DNA of 64,000 bases, taken from assembly GCA_017311185.1 (NCBI GenBank), contig JAESUZ010003487.1, positions 716,001 through 780,000 of the forward strand, in the 5' to 3' direction. Below, piece after piece: positions 17,521 to 61,910 of the stretch; the stretch's first letter is position 1; each line of letters begins with the position of its first letter. The translations under genes and the position numbers were made by a program. Origin of the DNA: Proteles cristata cristata (lineage: Eukaryota; Chordata; Mammalia; Carnivora; Hyaenidae). Below the pieces are notes generated by a model. That model searched no databases. It saw only the letters and a list, made by a program, of their open reading frames with translations, and had not been told where the DNA came from.

Positions 17521-17850
17521 AAATTAATCAGTGGATAGATGACCAGTGTTTAAAAGAAATCAAGATGGGTCTTAATGAAAACTTAATGGACTAGCCAGAC
17601 AGCATTCAGAAAGAAACTATTCTGGTAATCACTTAGAGGAATGGGTTTGTACTAGTGTCAGACTATTAGGTTAGTGTTATCCAACCTACTTACAGTTTCA
17701 TTACATTAGGTTGAAGAAACTTCTCTAGCTTCTTATTATTGATAAATCTAGATAAATGCGGAATGCCTATATCAGAAAAGCACCAGAGACATTGTTGCCT
17801 GTACTATTTTGATCTCTTTTTTTTTTTTCAAGGTCCAGAATCATCCTTTT

Positions 17851-18179
17851 TCTGCATCCATTTTCTCTTTTTTTTTCATAATAGTTTATTGTCAAATTAG
17901 TTTCCACATAACACTCAGTGCTCATCTCCACAAGTGCCCTCCTCCATGCCCATCCCCCCTCTCCCCCACATCCATCAGTCCTCAGTTTTTGTCAGCATTC
18001 AAGAGTCTCTCATGGTTTGCTCCTCTCCCTTTCCCCCACCATTTCCCCCCTTCTTCTCCCCCTTGTTACTCCGCCAAGTTCCTCCTAATCCTCCTATATG
18101 TGCAAACATATGGTATTTGTCCTTCTCTGCCTGACTTATTTTGCTCAGCATAACACCCTCAAGGTCTGCATCCATTTTC
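17851..18179 (-). mobile_element. Short L1 3' end nested inside the transduced segment
   Basis: About 300 bp of L1 3' terminus, from the T-run at 17866-17876 and the complement of GACAATAAACTATT up to about 18164. Its own TSD TCTGCATCCATTTTC is at 17851-17865 and 18165-18179, and the target reads TTTC/AAG. It was therefore an independent insertion downstream of the L1-A source copy before being carried along. Its AATAAA (complement at 17885-17890) is the likely polyadenylation signal used by the transduced transcript. Confidence 0.9.
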
Positions 18180-18508
18180 AAGAACTATTCTTTCAATCTG
18201 TTAGTTTCTAGATACACAGAGTCTGATTTTGTTCTGAAGGGCAGGTGGGTTTTATTTCAGGTCTTTGTAGAGTTGAAGAGACATTATTAGCATGTAAGTG
18301 ATATTTGCATAGACAGATGAAATATTCTGCCTTCTGAGACCTTATGGAAATCCTCCCTATTAATAGCTACATTTAATGGAAGACATGGATTTTTATCACG
18401 TCAGCATCTTTCTTCTGTCAAGTGGCTAGTTCCTGTCCATGTCACTAAGTAATTTTAGAAAGCCACTACCATCTGTCTTTTTAGGACTAAGGGCATTTGA
18501 TTTTTTTC
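18180..18508 (-). other. Transduced non-L1 flank of the L1-A source locus
   Basis: This unique sequence lies between two L1 3' ends and inside the outer TSD. It should be the genomic DNA that followed the source L1 elsewhere in the genome, so it serves as a tag for finding the parent element. Confidence 0.8.
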
Positions 18509-18721
18509 TTTTTTTTTTTTTTTTACAAATAGTTTATTGTCAAATTAGTTTCCACATAACACCCAGTGCTCATCCCCACAAGTGTCCTCCTCCATGCCCA
18601 TCCCTCCTCCCCCCAACATCCATCAGTCCTCAGTTTTTGTCAGCATTCAAGAGTCTCTCATGGTTTGCCTCTCTCCCTTTCCCCCACCATTTCCGCCCTT
18701 CTTCTCCCCCTTGGTCCTCTG

Positions 18722-21700
18722 TTAAGTTCCTCCTAATCCTCCTATACGTGCACACATGATATTTGTCCTTCTCTGCCTGACTTATTTCGCTCAGCATAAC
18801 ACCCTCAAGGTCCATCCATGTTGCTACACATGGCCAGATTTCATTGTTTCTCATTGCCATGTAGTATTCCATGGTATAGATGACCACATCTTCTTGATCC
18901 ATTCATCTGTTGATGGACACTTAGGCTCTTTCCAGGTTTTAGCTATTGTGGAGAGTGCTGCTATGAACATTGGGGTACATGTGCTCCTATGCATCAACAT
19001 TTCTGTATCCCTTGGGTAAATTCCTAGCAGTGTTATTGCTGGGTCATAGGGGAGTTCTATTGTTAGTTTCCTGAGGAACCTCCACACTGTTTTCCAGGAG
19101 GGCTGTACCAGTTTACATTCCCACCAACAGTGTAGGAGGGTGCCCGTTTCTCCACATCCTCGCCAGCATCTAGAGTTCTCTGATTTGCTCATTTTAGCCA
19201 CTCTGGCTGGCGTGAGGTGGTATCTCAGTGTGGTTTTGATTTGTATTTCCCTGATGAGGAGGGATGCTGAGCATCGTTTCATGTGTCTGTTGGCCATCTG
19301 GATGTCCTCTCTGGAGAAGTGTCTGTTCATATCTTCTGTCCATTTCTTCACTGGGTTGTTTGTTTTTCGGGCATGGAGTTTGGTGAGTTCCTTGTAGATT
19401 CTGGATATCAACCCTTTATCTGATATGTCATTTGCAACTACCTTTTCCCATTCCGTTGGTTGCCTATTAATTTTCTGGGTTGTTTCCTTGGCTGTGCAGA
19501 AGCTTTTAATCTTGATGAGGTCCCAATCAGTTTATTTTTGCTCTTGAATCCCTTGCTTTTGGGGATGTGTCAAGTAAGAAGTTGCTGCGGTGGAGGTCAA
19601 GGAGGTTGTTTCCTGCTTTCTCCTCTAGGGTGTTGATAGTTTCCTGTCTCACGTTCAGGTCCTTTATCCATTTTGAGTTTATTTTTGTGCATGGTGTGAG
19701 AAAATGATCTAGTTTCATTCTTCTGCATGTTGCTGTCCAGTTCTCCCAACACCATCTGTTAAAAAGGCTGTCTTTTCCATCGGATATTCTTTCCTGCTTT
19801 GTCAAAGATTAGTTGGCTGTATACTTTTGGGTCCACTTCTGAGTTCTCAATTCTGTTCCATTGGTCTATGTGTCTGTTTTTGTGCCAATACCATACTGTC
19901 TTGATGATGACAGCTTTGTAGTAGAGGCTAAAGTCTGGGATGGTGATCCCTCCCGTTTTGGTTTTATTTTTCAGGATTACTTTGGCTATTCGGGGTCTTT
20001 TGTGGTTCCATACAAATTTTTGGATAGTTTGTTCTAGTTTTGAGAAGTATGCTGGTGCAATTTTGATTGGAATTGCATTGAATGTGTAGAGTGCCTTAGG
20101 TCGTAATGACATCTTAACTGTATTTATTCTTCCTATCCATGAGCATGGAATGTTTTTCCATTTCTTTGTGTCTTCTTCAATTTCCTTCGTAAGTTTTCTA
20201 TAGTTTTCCTCATACAGATCTCTTGTATCCTTGGTTAGGTATATTCCGAGGTATTTTATGGTTTTTTGTGCAATTGTGAATGGGATCAGTTTCTTGATTT
20301 CTCTTTCTGTGGCTTCATTGTTGGTGTATAAAAATGCAACCGATTTCTGTACATTGATTTTGTACCCTGCAACTTGGCTGAATTCTTGGATCAGTTCTAG
20401 TAGGCTTCTGGTGGAGTCTGTCGGGTTTTCTATGTAGAGTATCATGTCATCTGCGAAGAGTGAAAGTTTGACTTCCTCTTTGCCAATTCTGATGCCTTTG
20501 ATTTCCTTTTGTTGTCTGATGGCTGATGCTAGGACTTCCAGCACTATGTTAAACAGCAGTGGTGAGAGTGGGCATCCCTGTCGTGTTCCTGATCTCAGAG
20601 GGAAAGCTCTGAGTTTTTCCCCGTTGAGGATGATGTTAGCTGAAGGCTTCTCATAGATGGCTTTGATGATGTTTAAGTAGGTTCCTCTATCCCAACTTTC
20701 TCGAGAGTCTTTATTAAGAAGCGATGCTGTATTTTGTCAAATGCTTTTTCTTCATCTATTGACAGGATCATATGGTTTTTATCTTTTGTTTTATTGATAT
20801 GATGTATCACATTGATTGATTTGCGAATGTTGAACCAGCCCTGTAACCCAGGAATGAATCCCACTTGATCTTGGTGGATGATTCTTTTTATATGCTGCTG
20901 GATTCGATTTGCAAGGATCTTGTTGAGAATTTTTGCATCCGTATTCATCAAGGATAGTGGCCTGTAGTTCTCTTTTTTTGCTGGATCTCTGTCTGGCTTG
21001 GGAATCAGAGTGATGTTGGCTTCATAAAATGAGTCTGGGAGTTTTCCTTCGATTTCTATATTTTGGAATAGCTTGAGAAGAATTGGGATTAATTCTGTTT
21101 TAAATGTCTGGTAGAATTCCCCAGGGAAGCCATCAGGTCCAGGGCTCTTATTTGTTGGGAGATTTTTGATCACTGATTCAATATCTTCACTCGTTATGGG
21201 TCTGTTCAGGTTTTCTATTTCTTCCCGTGTGAATTTTGGTAGTGAGTGTGTGTTTAGGAATTTGTCCATTTCTTCAAAGTTGTCCAATTTGTTGGCATAT
21301 AATTTTTCATAGTATTCCCTGATAATTGCTTGTATTTCTGAGGGGTTGGTTGTAATAAGTCCATTTTCATTCATAATTTTGTCTATTTGGGTGCTCTCTC
21401 TTTTCTTTTGGATAAGTCTGGCTAGAGGTTTGTCAATTTTGTTTACTTTTTCAAAAAACCAACTCTTGGTTTCATGGATCTGTTCAATTGTTTCTTTCGT
21501 CTCTATGTTGTTTATTTCTGCTCTTATTTTTACTATTTCTCTTCTTCTACTGGGTTTAGGGCGTTCTTGTTGCTCTGCCTCTAGTTCCTTTAGGTGAGCT
21601 GGTAGATTTTGGACTTGCGCTTTTTCTAATCTCTTGAAATAGGCCTGGAGAGCAATGTACTTTCCTCTTAGGACCGCCTTTGCCGCATCCCATAGATTTT

Positions 21701-22569
21701 GAATTGTTGTGTTTTCATTTTCATTTCTTTCCATATATTTTTTAATTTCATCTCTAATTGCCTGATTGGCCCATTCATTCTTTAGAAGGGTGTTCTTTAA
21801 CCTCATGTTTTTGGAAGTTTTCCAGACTTCTTCTGGTAATTGATTTCAAGTTTCAAAGCATTGTGATCTGACAGTGTGCATGGTATGATCTCTATTCTTT
21901 TATATTTATTGAGGGCTGCTTTATGTCCCAGTATGTGATCTATCTTGGAGAATGTGCCATGCGCACTTGAGAAGAAAATAAATTCTCTGGCCTCAGAATG
22001 TAAAGTTCTAAATATATCCGTCAGGTCCATCTGGTCCAATGTTCTTTCAAGTCCATTATTTCTTTAGTGATTTTCTGTCTGGTTGACCTATCCATTGCTG
22101 TAAGTGGAGTATTAAAGTCCCCTGCTATTAGCACATTCTTATCTATAAGCTTGTTTTTGTTTGTGATTAATTGTTTTAGATATTTAGGTGCTCCCATATT
22201 CGGTGCGTAGACATTTATGATTGTTAGTTCTTCCTGATGGATGGACCCTGTAATTATTATGTAGTGCCCTTCTTCATCTCTTGTGATTGTCTTTAATTTA
22301 AAGTCCAGTTTGTCTGATATAAGTATCGCTACTCCGGCTTTCTTTTGATTTCCTGTAGCATGATATATATTTCTCCATCCCCTTACTTTTAATCTGAAGG
22401 TATCTTCCCGTCTAAAATGAGTTTCTTGTAGACAGCATATAGATGGATTTTGTTTTTTAATCCATTCTGCTACCCTATGTCTTTTGATCGGAGCATTCAG
22501 CCCATTGACATTCAGTGTTATTATTGAAATATGTGGGTTTAGAGTCTTTGTATCTTTTGTAGGGTTCAT
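18722..22569 (-). pseudogene. L1-A ORF2 remnant (endonuclease, RT, C-terminal domain)
   Basis: L1 ORF2 normally encodes a protein of about 1,275 residues with an AP-like endonuclease, a reverse transcriptase and a cysteine-rich C-terminal part. Here 3.85 kb keeps nearly the full length. The start is ATG at 22569. Endonuclease motifs are visible: LNVNGLNAP (near 22510), QETHF (near 22430), IAGDFN (near 22130), SDHNAL (near 21860). RT motifs include [13 protein letters not shown] (near 21140), [11 protein letters not shown] (near 20750) and LFADDMILY (near 20455). The C-terminal CWWECK block is near 19100. It is broken by a 1-nt deletion near 22040, by the ACATGAGG frameshift at 21803-21806, after the KVGIEEP segment near 20680, near 19770, and near 19520 and 18900. 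It cannot make a full ORF2 protein. Confidence 0.92.
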
Positions 22570-22615
22570 GTTTGTGGTGGTGTCTCTGGAATCTTTGTTC
22601 CTTGCAACCTTTCCT

Positions 22616-23508
22616 TCAGAGCATCCCCCTCAGGATTTCTTGTAGGGCTGGCTTCGTGGTGACAAATTCTTTCAATTTCTGTTTGTTTGGAAAGGTTTTT
22701 ATCTCTCCTTCTATTTTGAATGACAGGCTTGCTGGATAGAGGATTCTTGGCTGCATATTTTTACTGTTCATCACATTGAAGATCTCCTGCCATTCCTTTC
22801 TGGCCTGCCACGTTTCAGTAGATAGGTCTGTCACCACTCTGATAGGTTTCCCTTGTATGTGAGGGCCCTTTTCTCCCTAGCTGCTTTCAAAATTCTCTCT
22901 TTGTCCTTGTATTTTGCCATTTTTACGATGATATGTCGTGCAGAAGATCGATTCAAGTTACGTCTGAGGGGAGTCCTCTGAGCCTCTTGTATTTCCACAT
23001 TTACTTCCTTCCCCAGGTCGGGGAAGTTCTCTGCTATAATTTGTTCCAGGACTCCTTCAGCACCTTTCCCTCTCTCTTCCTCTTCTGGGATTCCTATGAT
23101 ACAGATATTGTTGCGTTTGACCGTATCACTGAGCTCTCAAATTCTTCTTTCCTGTTCCTGGATCAGTTTGTCTCTTTTTTTGTCAGCTTCTTGTTTTTCT
23201 ATAATGGTGTCTTCTAAATCACTTATTCTCCTTTCTGCCTCTTCAATCCGTGCATTGGAGGCCTCTAATTCATTATGTATCTCATTTATCGCATTTTTTA
23301 ATTCTTCATGCCTATTTTTATTTTCCATTCTGTCTGTAGCCATAGTTTCTTTGATGTCCCCTATGTTTTTTTCAAGCCCTGCTATTAATTTTACCATTAT
23401 TATTCTAAAATCTTGTTCACTTATGCTGCTGATATCTGTTTTGAGCAGTTCATTAGCTGTCATTTCTTCTTGGAGTTTCTTTGGAGGAGAGCTCTTTCAT
23501 TTCGTCAT
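22616..23508 (-). pseudogene. L1-A ORF1 remnant (RNA-binding coiled-coil protein)
   Basis: L1 ORF1 encodes a trimeric RNA chaperone with an N-terminal coiled coil, an RRM and a C-terminal domain. The coiled coil is visible in the minus frame 23137-23463 (heptad-rich NEIHNELEASNARIEEAERR region). The C-terminal domain is in minus 22616-22837 (EWQEIFNVMNSKN, ILYPASLSFKIEGEI). Three lesions are visible by comparison with L1-B: ATG ACG AAA TGA at 23508-23497 stops at codon 4; a CGA-to-TGA change at about 23136, a typical CpG transition; and a 1-nt loss near 22850 (CCCTTGTATG against CCCTTTGTATG). ORF2 starts 46 nt downstream. Confidence 0.9.
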
Positions 23509-23968
23509 TTTAGTTAGCTTTCTGGCTCTTGTTGGTTTTAAAGACCTGTTATGCTCTCTGTTTCTATGAGTGCTGCTATATCCAAGAAGACTCTTTGACT
23601 TTCCAGGGCCTATCCTTTCAGAGATTGTTTTTTGAATGGTATCCCCCAGTCTCTCTTGTTGGGACCTTAGTTATTTTATTTTCCTATTCGTAGCGATATT
23701 TGGGACTCTTCACCTTGTGTACTCTAGCTTGTTTCTTGAGATAGCCCTCTCAGGCAGGGATGGGCGTGGCGTGATCCGATGCCTCAGGCGGGCGTTTCGC
23801 CTTGGCGGTTGTGAGGAGGAGAGTGAGGGTGCTCCAGTCCCTTCTTGAACCCCGTGATGCAGCTTGCTTTTTTTTGGCGTGCCAACTCCCCGTTCTGGGG
23901 ACGCAGCCGAAGTTGGTTGCACTCTTCATCCCAGGCCAGTTCCAATCTCCAAATTTTGGAGTACTATT
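23509..23968 (-). mobile_element. L1-A partial 5' UTR with spliced-type junction
   Basis: Matches the L1-B 5' UTR at both ends but skips L1-B 58876-59584; the join is at 23746/23747. Upstream (in L1 sense) about 210 nt match L1-B up to about 23956. After that, 23957-23968 (ATTTTGGAGTACTATTT) does not match and partly copies the target, so the element is 5'-truncated inside the UTR. Confidence 0.85.
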
Positions 23969-23987
23969 TGTACTATTTTGATCTCTT

Positions 23988-55138: not shown

Positions 55139-55400
55139 CTATTTTCTTTTTTTTTTTTTTTGCATTTTCTCTTCCTTATGACTTTCTTTTTTTTTTAAAT
55201 AAAAAATAGTTTATTGTCAAATTAGTTTCCACATAACACCCAGTGCTCATCCCCACAAGTGTCCTCCTCCATGTCCATCCCTCCTCCCCCCCCCACATCC
55301 ATCAGTCCTCAGTATTTGTCAGCATTCAAGAGTCTCTCATGGTTTGCCTCTCTCCCTTTCCCCCATCATTTCCCCACTTCTTTTCCCTCTTGTTCCTCAG

Positions 55401-57684
55401 TTAAGTTCCTCCTAATCTTCCTATATGTGCAAACATATGATATTTGTCCTTCTCTTCCTGAATTATTTTGCTCAGCATAACACCCTCAAAGTCCATCCAT
55501 GTTGCTACACATGGCCACATTTCATTTTTTCTCATTTCCATGCAGTATTCCATGGTATAGATAAACCACATCTTCTTGATCCATTTGTCCGTTGATGGAC
55601 ACTTAGGCTCTTTCCATGTTTTAGCTATTATTGAGAGTGCTGCTATGAACAACAGTGGTGAGAGTGGACATCCCTGTCGTGTTCCTGATCTCAGAGGGAA
55701 AGCTCTCAGTTTTTCCCCGTTGAGGATGATGTTAGCTGAAGACTTCTCATATTTGGCTTTGATGATGTTTAAGTAGGTTCCTTCTATCCCAACTTTCTCT
55801 AGAGTCTTTATGAAGAAGGGATGCTGTATTTTGTCAAATGCTTTTTCTGCATCTATTGACAGGATCATATCGTTTTTATCTTTTCTTTTATTGATATGAT
55901 ATATCACATTGATTGATTTGCAAACGTTGAAACAGCCCTGTAACCCAGGAATGAATCCCACTTGATCTTGGTGGATGATTCTTTTTATGTGCTGCTGGAT
56001 TCAATTTGCAAGGATCTTGTTGAGGATTTTTGCATCCGTATTCATCAAGGATATTGGCCTGTGGTTCTCTTTTTTTGCTGGATCTATGTCTGGCTTGGGA
56101 ATCAGAGTGATGCTGGTTTCATTAAATGAGTCCGGGAGTTTTCCTTCGATTTCTATTTTTTGGAATAACTTGAGAAGAATTGGGATTAATTCTGTTTTAA
56201 ATGTCTGGTAGAATTCCCCAGGGAAGCCATCAGGTTCAGGGCTCTTATTTGTTGGGAGATTTTTGATAACTGATTCGATTTCTTCACTCGTTATGGGTCT
56301 GTTCAGGTTCTCTGTTTCTTCCCGTGTGAATTTGGTAGTGAGTGTGTGTTTAGGAATTTGTCCATTTCTTCAAAGTTGTCCAATCTGTTGGCATATAATT
56401 TTTCATAGTATTCCCTGACAATTGCTCGTATTTCTGAGGGGTTGGTTGTAATAAGTCCATTTTCATTCATAATTTTGTCTATTTGGGTGCTCGCTCTTTT
56501 CTTTTTGATAAATCTGGCTAGAGGCTTGTCAATTTTATTTATTTTTTCAAAAAACCAACTCTTGGTTTCATTGATCTGTTCAATTGTTTCTTTGGTCTCT
56601 ATGTTGTTTATTTCTGCTCTAAGTTTTACTTTTCTCTACTGGGTTTAGGTTACTATTTGGGTTACTATTTTTTCTGGGTTTAGGGTGTTCTTGTTGCTCT
56701 GCCCCTAGTTCCTTTAGGTGAGCTGTTAGATTTTGGACTTGCGTTTTTTCTAATCTCTTGAAATAGGCCTGGGGAGCAATGTACTTTCCTCTTAGGACTG
56801 CCTTTGCCGCATCCCATAGATTTTGAATTGTTGTGTTTTCATTTGTTTCCATATATTTTTTAATTTTATCTCTGATTGCCTGATTGGCCCATTCATTCTT
56901 TAGTAGGATGTTCTTTAACCTCATGTTTTTGGAGGTTTTCCAGACTTCTTCCGGTAATTGATTTCAAGTTTCAAGCATTATGATCTGACAGTGTGCATGG
57001 TAGGATCTCAATTCTTTTATATTTATTGAGGGCTGCTTTATGTCCCAGTATGCGATCTATCTTGGAGAATGTGCCATGCGCACTTGAGAAGAAAGTAAAT
57101 TCCCTGGCCTCAGGATGTAAAGTTCTAAATATATCCGTCAGATCCATCTGGTCCAATGTGTCTTTCAAGTCCATTATTTCTTTACTGATTTTCTGTCTAG
57201 TTGACCTATCCATTGCTGTAAGCGGAGTATTAAAGTCCCCTGCTATTAGCACATTCTTATCTATAAGCTTGTTTCTGTTTGTGATTGTCTTAGATATTTA
57301 GGTGCTCCCATATTCGGTGCGTAGACATTTATGATTGTTAGTTCTTCCTGATGGATGGACCCTGTAATTATTATGTAGTGCCCTTCTTCATCTCTTGTGA
57401 TTGTCTTTAGTTTAAAGTCCAGTTTATCTGATATAAGTATCGCTACTCCGGCTTTCTTTTGATTTCCTGTAGCATGATACATATTTCTCCATCCCCTTAC
57501 TTTTAATCTGAAGGTATCTTCTAGTCTAAAATGAGTTTCTTGTAGACAGCATATAGATGGATTTTGTTTTTTTAATCCATTCTGCAACCCTATCTCTTTT
57601 GACTGGAGCATTCAGCCCATTGACATTCAGTGTTATTATTGAAATATGTGGGTTTAGAGTCTTTGTGTCCTTTGTGGAGTTCAT
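55401..57684 (-). pseudogene. L1-B ORF2 remnant with internal deletion
   Basis: The start codon is at 57684; the natural stop is at 55401-55403. Endonuclease text lies in minus 57261-57611 (QETHFRLEDTF, NVYAPNMGAP) and minus 56971-57252 (IAGDFNTPLTAMDR, FFSSAHGTFSK, SDHNA). The N-terminal RT part is in minus 56619-56924. In minus 55401-55961, RT sequence reading GCPLSPLLF is joined to C-terminal text [14 protein letters not shown] at about 55648-55651, so the FADD-containing palm and most of the region beyond are missing. Further frameshifts occur near 57252-57261, 56940-56965 and 56640. It shares the ACATGAGG frameshift (56921-56924) with L1-A. It cannot encode an active RT. Confidence 0.9.
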
Positions 57685-57730: not shown

Positions 57731-58637
57731 TCAGAGCATCCCCCTCAGGATTTCTTGTGGGGCTGGCTTCGTGGTGACAAATTCTTTCAGTTTCCGTTTA
57801 TTTGGAAAGGTTTTTATCTCTCCTTCTATTTTGAATGACAGGCTTGCTGGATAGAGGATTCTTGGCTGCATATTTTTACTGTTCATCACATTGAAGATCT
57901 CTTGCCATTCCTTTCTGGACTGCCACGTTTCAGTAGATAGGTCTGTCACCACTCTGATAGGTTTCCCTTTGTATGTGAGGGTCCTTTTCTCCCTAGCTGC
58001 TTTCAAAATTCTCTCTTTGTCCTTGTATTTTGCCATTTTTATGATGATATGTCGTGCAGAAGATCGATTCAAGTTACGTCTGAGGGGAGTCCTCTGAGCC
58101 TCTTGTATTTCCACATTGACTTCCTTCCCCAGGTCGGGGAAGTTCTCTGCTATAATTTGTTCCAGGACTCCTTCAGCACCTTTCCCTCTCTCTTCGTTCT
58201 CTGGGATAGAAGAGGACGTATCCTATGATACAGATATTGTTGTGTTTGACTGTGTCGCTGAGCTCTCGAATTCTTCTTTCTTGTTCCTGGATCAGTTTGT
58301 CTCTTTTTTTGTTAGCTTCTTGTTTTTCTATAATGGTGTCTTCTAAATCACTTATTCTCCTTTCTGCCTCTTCAATCTGTGCATTGGAGGCTTCAAATTT
58401 ATTATGTATCTCATTTATCGCCTTTTTTATTACTTCATGCCTATTTTTATTTTCCATTCTGTCTGTAGCCATAGTTTCTTTGATATCCCCTATGTTGTTT
58501 TCAAGCCCAGCTATTAATTTTACTATTATTATTCTAAAATCTTGTTCAGTTATGCTGCTGATATCTGTTTTGAGCAGTTCATTAGCTGTCATTTCTTCTT
58601 GGAGTTTCTTTGGAGGAGAGCTCTTTCTTTTTGTCAT
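57731..58637 (-). pseudogene. L1-B ORF1 remnant
   Basis: Starts with a basic N terminus MTKRKSSPPKK at 58637, then a coiled coil (minus 58173-58637). The RNA-binding and C-terminal part is in minus 57731-58114 (SARHIIIKMAKYKDKERIL, EWQEIFNVMNSKN, SFKIEGEIKTF). The halves are out of frame because of a 13-nt insertion (AGAAGAGGACGTA) near 58208-58220 and substitutions next to it. Otherwise it is better preserved than L1-A ORF1, with no early stop. Confidence 0.88.
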
Positions 58638-58875
58638 TTTAGTTAGCTTTCCGGCTCTTGTTGGTTTTAAAGACCTGTTATGCTCTCTGTTTCTATGAGC
58701 GCTGCTATATCCAAGAAGACTCTTTGACTTTCCAGGGCCTATCCTTTCAGAGATTGTTTTTTGAATGGTATCCCTCGGTCTCTCTTGTTGGGACCTTGGT
58801 TATTTTATTTTCCTATTCGTAGTGATGTTTGGGACTCTCCACCTTGTGTACTCTAGCTTGTTTCTTGAGGTAGCC

Positions 58876-59584
58876 CTAGAAAAGAAAACAGACAGACAAA
58901 CACACAGGGAGCAGGAGCACACAAACGCACAGGCTAATTCAACTAACATGCAAGGCGAGAGGGAAAACGAAAAAGTTAAGAGAAAAGACAGAGGAGGGAG
59001 GGCGAATAATAGGGAGTATAAAACACATAAAAGGGTCAAAAAGGGGAATAGAAAAGGAAAAAAGAAGAAAACCAATGGACAAAGAATGGTTTAAAGCGTA
59101 TGACCGGATTTCCCAGGTACAGTTAAATAGCCGTGAGTATGCAGTGCTGGTTGAAGAGCATAGAGAGAGAGAGAGAAGGCAGGGCGGGATGAGGCACAAT
59201 TGGAAATAGAATGAACAGGCAGAAGGGATAAGAAGTTTTTTTCAAAGAGGTAAAGGGTAGAAAATGGTTGGATAGGTGAGAAAAGGATGCTGGTATTATC
59301 CAGAGAAACTATATAGTCTAATTACTCCTGAGAGAAAGAGCTGAAAATGTAGGTCGGTGTAGAATTTACATTTACAGAATGGACTCATTGTGCTTGTTTA
59401 AGCAAGCTGGTGACCAGAGTTAATTAGGTCAGTGTTCTGGGGAAAAAAGAGAGAAAAGAGAAAGAAGAAGAAAAAAAGAAACGGTAAAAAAGGGAGAAAA
59501 AAAGAAAAAAAAAAGAAAAAAAAAGGAAAAAATAAACAAAAAAAAAGAAAAAGAAAAAAAGAAAACAAAAAGGGAGGAGGACAC
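58876..59584 (-). other. Putative intron in L1 5' UTR
   Basis: On the L1 sense strand the segment begins GAGAG/GTGTCC at 59585/59584 and ends GTCTGTTTTCTTTTCTAG/GGCTACC at 58876/58875. L1-A has exactly this 709-nt segment missing, with exons joined as GAGAG/GGCTATC. The acceptor has a long pyrimidine tract. The join is ambiguous by three or four bases because CCCT or CCT lies at both sides, but one of the possible positions gives a canonical GT-AG pair. Confidence 0.7.
59437..59580 (+). repeat. Purine-rich A/G tract
   Basis: About 140 bases almost wholly A and G on the plus strand (AAAAAAGAGAGAAAAGAGAA through AAAAGGGAGGAGGA). On the L1 sense strand this is a polypyrimidine run just inside the donor end of the putative intron. 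Confidence 0.95.
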
Positions 59585-60554
59585 CTCTCAGGCAGGGATG
59601 GGAGTGGCAGATCTAATGCCTCAGGCGGGAGCTCTGCCTTGGCGATTGTGGGGAGGAGAGTGACGGTGCTCCAGTCCCTTCTTGAACCAAGCGCTGCACC
59701 TCGCTTTTTTCGGAGTGTCAACTCCCCGTCTCGGGGGCACAGCCGAAGTTGGTTGCACTCTTCAAGCCAGGCCAGTTCCAATCTCCAAATCTCAGTCCGC
59801 GCACCCCGCTGAAATTGCGTTAGACACAGCTTCCCAGGCAACCCCCTCGGGCAATTCCAGGCCCCCTGCCGAGCTCTGGGGGTGGAGTCAGAATCGCTCC
59901 TTCCTTCTCTGGGGCGGGCTGGCGAGCATGCGCGGGGGCTTGCCTGCCGGGTGCACCGAGCCTGCTGGAGTGAGGAAAACCAGGTCTCTCTATGGCTCGT
60001 CACCCGAAATATGAACTCACAGGCAAATTTCCCAGGTTTTAGCTCTCTGCCTTCCCTCTCGAGTTCCAGCCAGCCTGGCGCGCAGACGCCCAGTGTCTGC
60101 GCGGCTCTTTCAGGGGCCCCAGCCGCCCGGGAGGACAATGGTGGCAGGCGCGCCACCGCTCTGAAGTCCTGCCTCCAGGAGACAGCACAAAGGAGCAGTC
60201 TGTGTGCTCATCTCCCCCCAGGACCAGTTGGCGCGAGGGGACCTGGTGTGCAGGTATTTGGCAAGTACGGTCTTTCTATGCACCGAGCGGAGCTTTTTCT
60301 CCCCGAGCGGAGGTTTTTCTGTTTCAGACTCTCTCCTTTTCCTTTCTCACTCCCCGTAGAGGGTAGAGGGGGATTGCCTCCCACCCTGGAGTCTCCGATC
60401 CCTGCTCGATTTTATCTTCCCCGGTTCGTACTCACGTTAGGAGGCTTGCTCAGTGGATTCTGCGTCCTTTTGTTCCCAATCTCTCAGGTTTTGTAAGGAT
60501 TCCAAAGGCTTCAGATCTTTTCTGTGTGGTGTATGGGCGCGATTGCCTATTTTC

Positions 60555-61910
60555 AATAGACTCTAATGTCAAGAGAGTCACCATGCACACAACCAAATGG
60601 TACATTAGCACTAACTATAACATGCTTACAAGAAATTCACTACATATGAATATTATAGTTGATTCATTCCCTAACATTCATTCCACCCAGGTGACTGGCC
60701 TAAGCCAGTCATGGCATGTCCATATCTCTTGCCAGAAAATGGTTCAAGAACGGGCATACGGCCAATGAGATATGAGGGGAGGTCTGCAGGGACTTCTGGG
60801 AAACATTTTCCTGACTCTAAAGAGAGAACTCAAAAAAAAGGATGGTCTTGTCTTTTCTAGATAATAAGTCAGCATGACAGGACTAGAATTTCCACAGCTA
60901 TATTGTTACTAAATAAAGAAGGAAGCAAACCTGGCATGGTTGAGAAGACACGGAAAGACGCTGGATCCTTGATGATATCACCAATGGAATCCAAGTTTTA
61001 TTACTTACAGAGAAAATTATTCTAGTAATAACATGTTTTGAGCACCAGTGACATATTGAGCTGAAAAAGGACTGTTTATAGTTAAATTTATGCAGGCATG
61101 CCTAGGAAGAAAATCAGAGGTGTTTAAGACAAATAGAAGAGCAAATTTAGAATGAAGAACAGGGGCTATTTTCAGATTAGGTCTTATGAAAAGACTAATC
61201 TATTACTAAAATCAAGAGATTGGTCAAGCCATGAGAGAAAGTCGAAAAATACAAATGTAGTCAATACTTCGAAGTGGGAGTTACTTTCTTGTACCTCAAA
61301 GGATGACTTCAAACTACACCAAAAGTCTTGCCAAAGTGAGACAAAAATGTAAGAGACCTAATGCCAATACAAAAAAAGTTGTTGATCCATGAAAGGCTTG
61401 GTATGTTCTGCCTTCCTATAAGAAGAACAAAGACCATTGTCCATCTTCTTGATTGTCAGGTAAACTTCAAAGACAAGAGAAGGTAATAATCAGGGTTTTT
61501 TTTTGGGGGGGGGCGCTGTAATACTCTAGCTTTGAATAAAATTGAAACATCAGGAAGATCCAACCACACACTGAGAACTACAGGACATTCAGTTAGTTCA
61601 CCATTAGCCATTTTACATGGTGGTGGTTTCCTTTCAATATATTCAATGAGGGTAAAAAAGATAGTGTACAAGCCAGATTTTATCATTTAAATACCAATTC
61701 ATTTTCATTGTTGCTATTGAAGTGTGAGTCTCACCTGCACCAAAATATAATTGTATATATAAGCAAACCACATATAATTATTGATGTGATATTGGGTGTT
61801 CATGATCTTGTACATTACAGAAAATTGTCTCCTCACTCCAATCCTTTCCTCCAAAGTCAGGGCTAGAGGAAAAGGGTCTAGTAAATGTGTCAAGAATAGA
61901 TAAAAATCTC
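60555..61910. other. Unique intergenic sequence, about 1.35 kb
   Basis: Right flank of L1-B. T-run with a G-run at 61497-61513 (TTTTTTTGGGGGGGGGCGC). No exon or repeat recognised. Confidence 0.35.

What the first reader, a model, noticed from the sequence alone, without database searches (positions are those of the whole stretch)
58876..59584. A GT-AG intron in the 5' UTR of a carnivore L1, absent from a second copy (spliced reinsertion)
Aligning the 5' UTRs of L1-A (23509-23956) and L1-B by eye shows that L1-A lacks exactly L1-B 58876-59584. On the L1 sense strand the missing 709 nt start GTGTCC after GAGAG and end in a long pyrimidine tract with TTTTCTAG before GGCTACC. L1-A reads GAGAG/GGCTATC. 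This is what reverse transcription of a spliced L1 RNA would give. Spliced integrated elements (SpIREs) are known for human L1; I do not know of a report in carnivore L1. The alternative is deletion using the 3-4 base CCT/CCCT microhomology, or insertion in the L1-B lineage.
Basis: partly seen in the sequence, partly recalled or inferred. Interest (0 to 1): 0.75.

Follow-up and report, generated by a model that had tools for sequence, protein, structure and literature searches.

The report
Spliced L1 copies in cat-like genome
In this cat-like genome, copies of the jumping gene LINE-1 seem to have had pieces of their leader cut out by RNA splicing before they were copied back into DNA, leaving many copies with one and the same precise gap.

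Summary
The window's own genome decides the cause. The joint occurs 217 times (reversed control 0); the uninterrupted acceptor 5571 times, so the segment is normal leader, not an insertion in L1-B. All 30 fetched joint copies have the same joint; the 28 spliced copies with a readable 5' flank have different flanks; the three checked at both ends have 18-19-nt target-site duplications. A tree does not unite the 709-lacking copies (p-AU 0.0099), though they cluster. There is a second intron: a conserved GTGAGT donor 146 nt from the L1 start. Copies exist with intron 2 removed, intron 1 removed, both removed, or exon 2 skipped; these exon-1 joints share only 0-1 nt and read GT-AG on L1-B. Splicing of L1 RNA before reverse transcription explains this best. 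Spliced L1 insertions (SpIREs) are known in humans; my searches found no carnivore report. No RNA was examined.

The parts
58876..59584 (-). intron 2 of the L1 leader, kept in L1-B, absent from L1-A
   Evidence: exact 709-nt gap; 217 joint matches, 5571 uninterrupted acceptor matches
59583..59584 (-). intron 2 donor GT (GAG|GTGTCC in L1-B; GAG|GTGCCC in most copies), weak
   Evidence: GT kept in 28 of 35 intron-keeping copies in which the site was found; score
58876..58877 (-). intron 2 acceptor AG behind a long pyrimidine tract
   Evidence: AG kept in 36 of 36 intron-keeping copies; 13 of 8840 window AGs score at least as well
59965..60435 (-). intron 1 of the L1 leader (kept in L1-B), donor GTGAGT at 60435, acceptor CACTCCAG at 59965
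   Evidence: absent with exact borders from L020 and L089; same donor with other acceptors in L067, L079, L077, L013
60436..60546 (-). exon 1 of L1-B (about 36 nt of the L1 start are missing in L1-B)
59585..59964 (-). exon 2
   Evidence: between the intron 1 acceptor and the intron 2 donor; skipped in L013
58638..58875 (-). leader part of exon 3, 238 nt up to the putative ORF1 ATG at 58635-58637 (ATG read by eye)
23746..23747 (-). spliced joint in L1-A
   Evidence: listed among the matches (C3329:739735-739761)
23747..23954 (-). what L1-A has left of exon 2
   Evidence: homology to 59585-59790
17800..23987 (-). L1-A insertion with its two 19-nt target-site duplications TGTACTATTTTGATCTCTT (17800-17818 and 23969-23987)

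Best explanation
The leader of this felid-like L1 family holds two GT-AG introns: intron 1 (60435-59965 in L1-B) and intron 2 (59584-58876). L1 RNA is sometimes spliced in the nucleus at one intron, at both, or with exon 2 skipped. No ORF sequence is removed, because intron 2 ends 238 nt before the putative ORF1 ATG. The spliced RNA is then reverse-transcribed into new sites by target-primed reverse transcription. L1-A is such an insertion (intron 2 removed, 5' truncated); L1-B comes from RNA that kept both introns. Shown from DNA: exact joints, GT-AG borders, many sites, target-site duplications in three copies, several combinations of joints. Inferred: the spliced RNA itself, the spliceosome as its maker, and the rate.
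For: 217 matches of the joint with at most 2 mismatches, reversed control 0. 30 of 30 fetched matches have GAGAG|GGCTACC. 28 spliced copies with a readable 5' flank (26 of these 30, plus L013 and L029) have different flanks; pairwise likeness is limited to 14-38 nt. Target-site duplications: L1-A 19 nt, L013/L040 19 nt, L029/L041 18 nt. The 709-lacking rows are not one clade: 31 against 36 rows, log-likelihood 92 lower when held together, p-AU 0.0099. In a sample not chosen by the joint (38 copies besides L1-B, chosen by exon-3 likeness to L1-B) three are spliced forms: L029 lacks intron 2, L020 lacks intron 1, L013 joins the exon 1 donor to the exon 3 acceptor. Of the 26 intron-2-less copies with a 5' end, 4 are also joined at the exon 1 donor. 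The exon 1 donor is the best-scoring of 85 GTs in L1-B 58500-60700. All six exon-1 joints read GT-AG on L1-B's sequence, with 0-1 nt of microhomology (read by eye). The intron 2 acceptor AG is kept in 36 of 36 intron-keeping copies.
Against: No RNA data. The intron 2 donor is poor (GAG|GTGCCC in most copies) and yet gives the common joint; two acceptor-like sites inside intron 2 (59437 and 59328 in L1-B) score 12.9 and 9.7 against 10.1 for the one used, and I saw no use of them. In most copies the bases before the L067/L079 joint read CCAGCGG, not AG; CAG stands there in L1-B and in L091, 1 of 35 other matches. The intron 2 joint has 3 nt of microhomology, so alone it could be a deletion. The 709-lacking rows cluster more than shuffled labels do (14 changes against a shuffled mean of 22.1, as low in 1 of 500), and L1-A's nearest row there is L068, which also lacks intron 2 (support 88/84), so some copies may descend from a spliced parent. 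Gaps elsewhere were not surveyed; L030 and L062 have gaps of about 75 nt that I did not examine.
Confidence: 0.95

Rival explanations
1. The gap is a DNA deletion or a jump of the reverse transcriptase between two short matching stretches (microhomology), and the GT-AG ends are chance.
For: The intron 2 joint has 3 nt of microhomology. The same pair of elements shows such an event: L1-B lacks 1586 nt of ORF2-side sequence with 4 nt of microhomology and no GT-AG reading. The intron 2 donor is weak.
Against: The same joint recurs 217 times in copies that a tree does not unite. Of 15,123 possible 3-nt-microhomology deletions in this leader 116 read as GT-AG and 3 have as good an acceptor. The joints at the exon 1 donor have 0-1 nt of microhomology (by eye).
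Confidence: 0.02
2. One element lost the segment once (by splicing or deletion) and then multiplied; the 217 copies are its descendants.
For: 709-lacking rows cluster in the tree; one branch of 26 rows holds 22 of them and 4 intron-keeping rows. They keep about 1 kb of leader upstream of the joint, so they might be active.
Against: One clade for the 31 rows is rejected (p-AU 0.0099); at least 3 changes are forced by well-supported branches. The rows were chosen differently (zero-mismatch joint matches against likeness to L1-B), which by itself clusters them by age. Intron 1 shows its own joints.
Confidence: 0.05
3. The segment is an insertion in the L1-B lineage.
For: From the two window copies alone it could not be excluded.
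Against: 36 of 38 other copies keep the acceptor side of the segment and the uninterrupted acceptor has 5571 matches in the genome.
Confidence: 0.003

Closest known systems
Intra-5'UTR SpIREs of human L1, Larson et al. 2018 (PMC5860796; outline, part 1 of Results, part 1 of Discussion and passages read)
   Same: L1 insertions from RNA spliced within the 5' UTR, exact donor-acceptor joints, target-site duplications, and a donor close to the 5' end (human G98U99; here about nt 147).
   Different: The human classes in the sections I read share one donor and differ in the acceptor, and lose promoter sequence. Here there are two introns in series, with each removed alone, both removed, or exon 2 skipped; the common class uses an internal donor and keeps about 1 kb of leader upstream of it.
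5'UTR/ORF1 SpIREs of human L1 (SpIRE97/976, same paper)
   Same: Spliced L1 RNA that was reinserted.
   Different: They lose the start of ORF1; the joints described here lie upstream of the putative ORF1 start.
Mouse L1 splice sites and exonization (PMC2176070; search listing only)
   Same: Splice sites in the L1 of another mammal.
   Different: The listed abstract concerns sites that exonize L1 into genes, not reinserted spliced L1 copies.

Membership tests
SpIRE | The missing segment joins a donor to an acceptor exactly (GT-AG) | tested here: met
   reservation: at the L067/L079 acceptor most other copies do not have AG
SpIRE | The same joint at independent genomic sites | tested here: met
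   217 matches; 28 readable 5' flanks differ
SpIRE | Target-site duplications and 3' poly(A) as in target-primed reverse transcription | tested here: met
   duplications in the three spliced copies checked at both ends; poly(A) read by eye for L1-A only
SpIRE | Insertion at an L1 endonuclease-type site | tested here: inconclusive
   L1-A alone looked at, by eye: TCTT/AA
SpIRE | Related full-length copies keep the intron with its splice sites | tested here: met
   intron 2 acceptor 36 of 36, donor 28 of 35; intron 1 donor GTGAGT in 17 of 18 readable copies of 20 fetched and in 22 of 22 other copies
SpIRE | Spliced L1 RNA is found | not testable with these tools
   no RNA data at hand
SpIRE | Reduced promoter activity of the spliced copy | not testable with these tools
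   needs a reporter assay
Microhomology deletion or template switch | Gap ends that vary between copies and need not be GT-AG | tested here: inconclusive
   the studied joints recur exactly, but gaps elsewhere in the leader were not surveyed; L030 and L062 have gaps of about 75 nt not examined

The most novel reading that the evidence does not exclude
This felid-like L1 carries a small optional gene structure in its leader (two introns, four forms preserved as genomic copies), and its intron-2-less insertions are not dead ends as described for human SpIREs: they keep most of the leader upstream of the joint and have founded lineages of their own, so that splicing acts as a source of new L1 subfamilies.
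Probability: 0.25. Interest if true: 0.75.

Novelty: new variant of a known kind. Interest (0 to 1): 0.62.

Why it matters
It suggests that splicing of L1 RNA followed by reinsertion is not special to primates. The genome holds a record of L1 splice forms from another mammalian order, with two introns and exon skipping, and so a second case for asking why L1 keeps costly splice sites and whether spliced copies can multiply.

Tried and rejected
Insertion in L1-B: refuted. One founder for all 709-lacking copies: rejected as sole cause. Relatives in other collections: none in viral contigs, genome contigs (27, 30), phages or plasmids; these hold microbial and viral DNA and say nothing about other carnivores. 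A protein search with residues 1-208 of a leader reading frame: 1181 candidates, none at E 0.01. Papers, all by listing unless stated: 'line-1' + 'spliced integrated retrotransposed' (12 of 12), + 'canine' + 'spire' (none), carnivore and felid terms (20 of 24 listed, none, none), canine splice terms (12 of 14 listed), spliced-L1 terms (12 of 59 listed, 13 of 13, 10 of 67 listed). No carnivore report was seen there; the library holds open-licence papers only. A MAFFT alignment split the gap wrongly; BLAST and base-by-base reading were used instead. Not obtained: counts of the exon-1-donor joints and of copies that keep the intron 2 donor (the fair denominator), because the genome machine stayed busy.

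Full report
Observation. L1-A (sense on the - strand) lacks exactly L1-B 58876-59584. The flanks align base for base and 3 nt (CCT on +) are shared, giving four equivalent joints, one of them GT-AG on the L1 sense strand. With recalled splice-site matrices, 13 of 8840 AGs in the window score at least as well as the acceptor, while the donor is weak (1076 of 6265 GTs at least as good). Of 15,123 possible 3-nt-microhomology deletions in this leader 116 read as GT-AG, 3 also have as good an acceptor and 2 also as good a donor, the real one included. L1-A is a retrotransposition product with 19-nt target-site duplications. As a contrast in the same pair, L1-B lacks 1586 nt on the ORF2 side with 4 nt of microhomology and no GT-AG reading.

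Ancestral state. The window's genome (2.39 Gb, 5412 contigs) could be searched. A 177-nt exon-3 query from L1-B gave 40 scored places of 1039 candidates. Of the 40, 39 were fetched, one being L1-B itself; the 40th, at a contig end, was left out. Of the 38 others, 36 keep the intron 2 acceptor, all with AG. The donor region was found in 35 of these 36; GT is kept in 28 of 35, and the length between the two sites runs from 619 to 927 nt. Genome-wide the uninterrupted acceptor has 2792 + 2779 = 5571 matches with at most 2 mismatches, control 0. The segment is ordinary leader, not an insertion in L1-B.

The joint recurs. The L1-A joint has 115 + 102 = 217 matches with at most 2 mismatches, control 0. 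217 of 5788 is 3.7 per cent, but the denominator includes copies truncated inside the intron, so this is not a splicing rate. The first 30 listed matches, all without mismatch, were fetched; 30 of 30 have the joint and 26 have the L1 5' end. With L013 and L029, 28 spliced copies have a readable 5' flank; likeness between flanks is limited to stretches of 14-38 nt. L029, one of the 38, has the same joint, a complete 5' end and an 18-nt duplication.

Not one lineage. In a tree of 40 rows L1-A was nearest to intron-keeping copies. With 68 rows (L007 and L033 dropped) its nearest row was L068, which lacks intron 2 (support 88/84); the intron-2-less label needs at least 14 changes, 3 of them forced by well-supported branches, against a shuffled mean of 22.1 (as low in 1 of 500), so it is clustered but not one clade. 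In that table the doubly spliced L067, L079 and L089 were a group of their own, L077 was counted with the single ones, and L020 with the intron-keeping ones. With L085 dropped as well (67 rows), holding the 31 intron-2-less rows together costs 92 log-likelihood units, p-AU 0.0099. Joint rows were zero-mismatch matches and the others were chosen by likeness to L1-B, so some clustering by age follows from the choice.

A second intron. A donor TCTAAY|GTGAGT lies 146 nt from GGCAAGATGG at the L1 start and is the best-scoring of 85 GTs in L1-B 58500-60700. Of 20 intron-2-keeping copies fetched for it (of 36), one showed no such region and one was cut at the stretch end (that one is L020); of the other 18, 17 keep GTGAGT. 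Of the 26 fetched joint copies with a 5' end, 22 keep it and 4 are joined there. In 69 loci screened (those that reach the site), six are joined exactly at this donor: L020 (intron 2 kept), L089, L067, L079 and L077 (intron 2 also gone), and L013, joined straight to exon 3. Read by eye on L1-B, the acceptors are CACTCCAG (L020, L089), CAGCAG (L067, L079), CAGAG (L077; or CCAG in tandem copies) and the exon 3 acceptor (L013), all AG. The reservation: among 35 other matches at the L067/L079 acceptor only L091 has CAG; 23 read TCCAGCGG. These joints share 0-1 nt, so microhomology does not explain them. Intron 2 alone, intron 1 alone, both, and exon 2 skipped are the forms expected of a two-intron transcript.

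Sample not chosen by the joint. Among the 38 copies picked only by exon-3 likeness, 3 are spliced forms: L013, L020, L029. L016 has no recognisable exon 2, its homology starting at 59334 inside intron 2. L010, L027 and L033 have long introns of 903-927 nt. Gaps elsewhere were not surveyed: L030 has one of about 75 nt over the ORF1 start and L062 one of about 75 nt in the leader, neither examined.

Mechanism and limits. Splicing of L1 RNA followed by target-primed reverse transcription explains the exact borders, the combinations and the duplications. No RNA was examined. Unexplained: why the poor donor GAG|GTGCCC gives the common joint, and why acceptor-like sites inside intron 2 (59437, 59328) were not seen in use.

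Known work. Larson et al. 2018 (PMC5860796; outline, part 1 of Results, part 1 of Discussion and passages read) describe human SpIREs: 131 of 6609 annotated full-length L1PA1-L1PA6, one donor, several acceptors, generally dead ends. Law and Burns 2026 (PMC13174262; abstract, outline and passages read) describe a SpIRE locus that appears to have regained activity from a gene promoter; 'dog', 'cat' and 'felid' have no whole-word hit in its main text. PMC5860798 was read in passages. The case here is a new variant of a known kind. That the genome is felid rests on SINE motifs that I recalled (10 felid-like heads, 0 canid-like), not on a name.

Noticed in passing
window 17800-18525 and 23955-23987: At its 3' end L1-A carries a stretch between two poly(A) tracts that looks like a 3' transduction, and within it a short L1 3' fragment with its own 15-nt duplication TCTGCATCCATTTTC (17851 and 18165). 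About 14 extra nt lie between the L1-A 5' end and its duplication.
   Followed up: partly
window 55648-55651 (L1-B) against 18966-20555 (L1-A): L1-B lacks 1586 nt on the ORF2 side with a 4-nt microhomology AACA and no GT-AG reading: an ordinary internal deletion.
   Followed up: yes
window 55139-55146 and 60547-60554: By eye L1-B is flanked by the 8-mer CTATTTTC, right where homology to other copies ends (60546): probably its short target-site duplication. No match of 9 or more was found.
   Followed up: partly
window 59964-60160; L069, L072, L074, L075, L076, L083, L087, L091: A leader unit of about 197 nt, single in L1-B, is present two or three times in other copies; some repeat units begin right after CACTCCAG, the intron 1 acceptor sequence.
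   Followed up: partly
window 59398-60207 (-): A stop-free frame of 269 codons runs through the L1-B leader across the intron 2 donor; residues 1-208 found no protein relatives. Probably chance in GC-rich sequence.
   Followed up: partly
L030 and L062: Gaps of about 75 nt relative to L1-B (L030 over 58584-58657, L062 over 59941-60015) whose ends were not examined.
   Followed up: no
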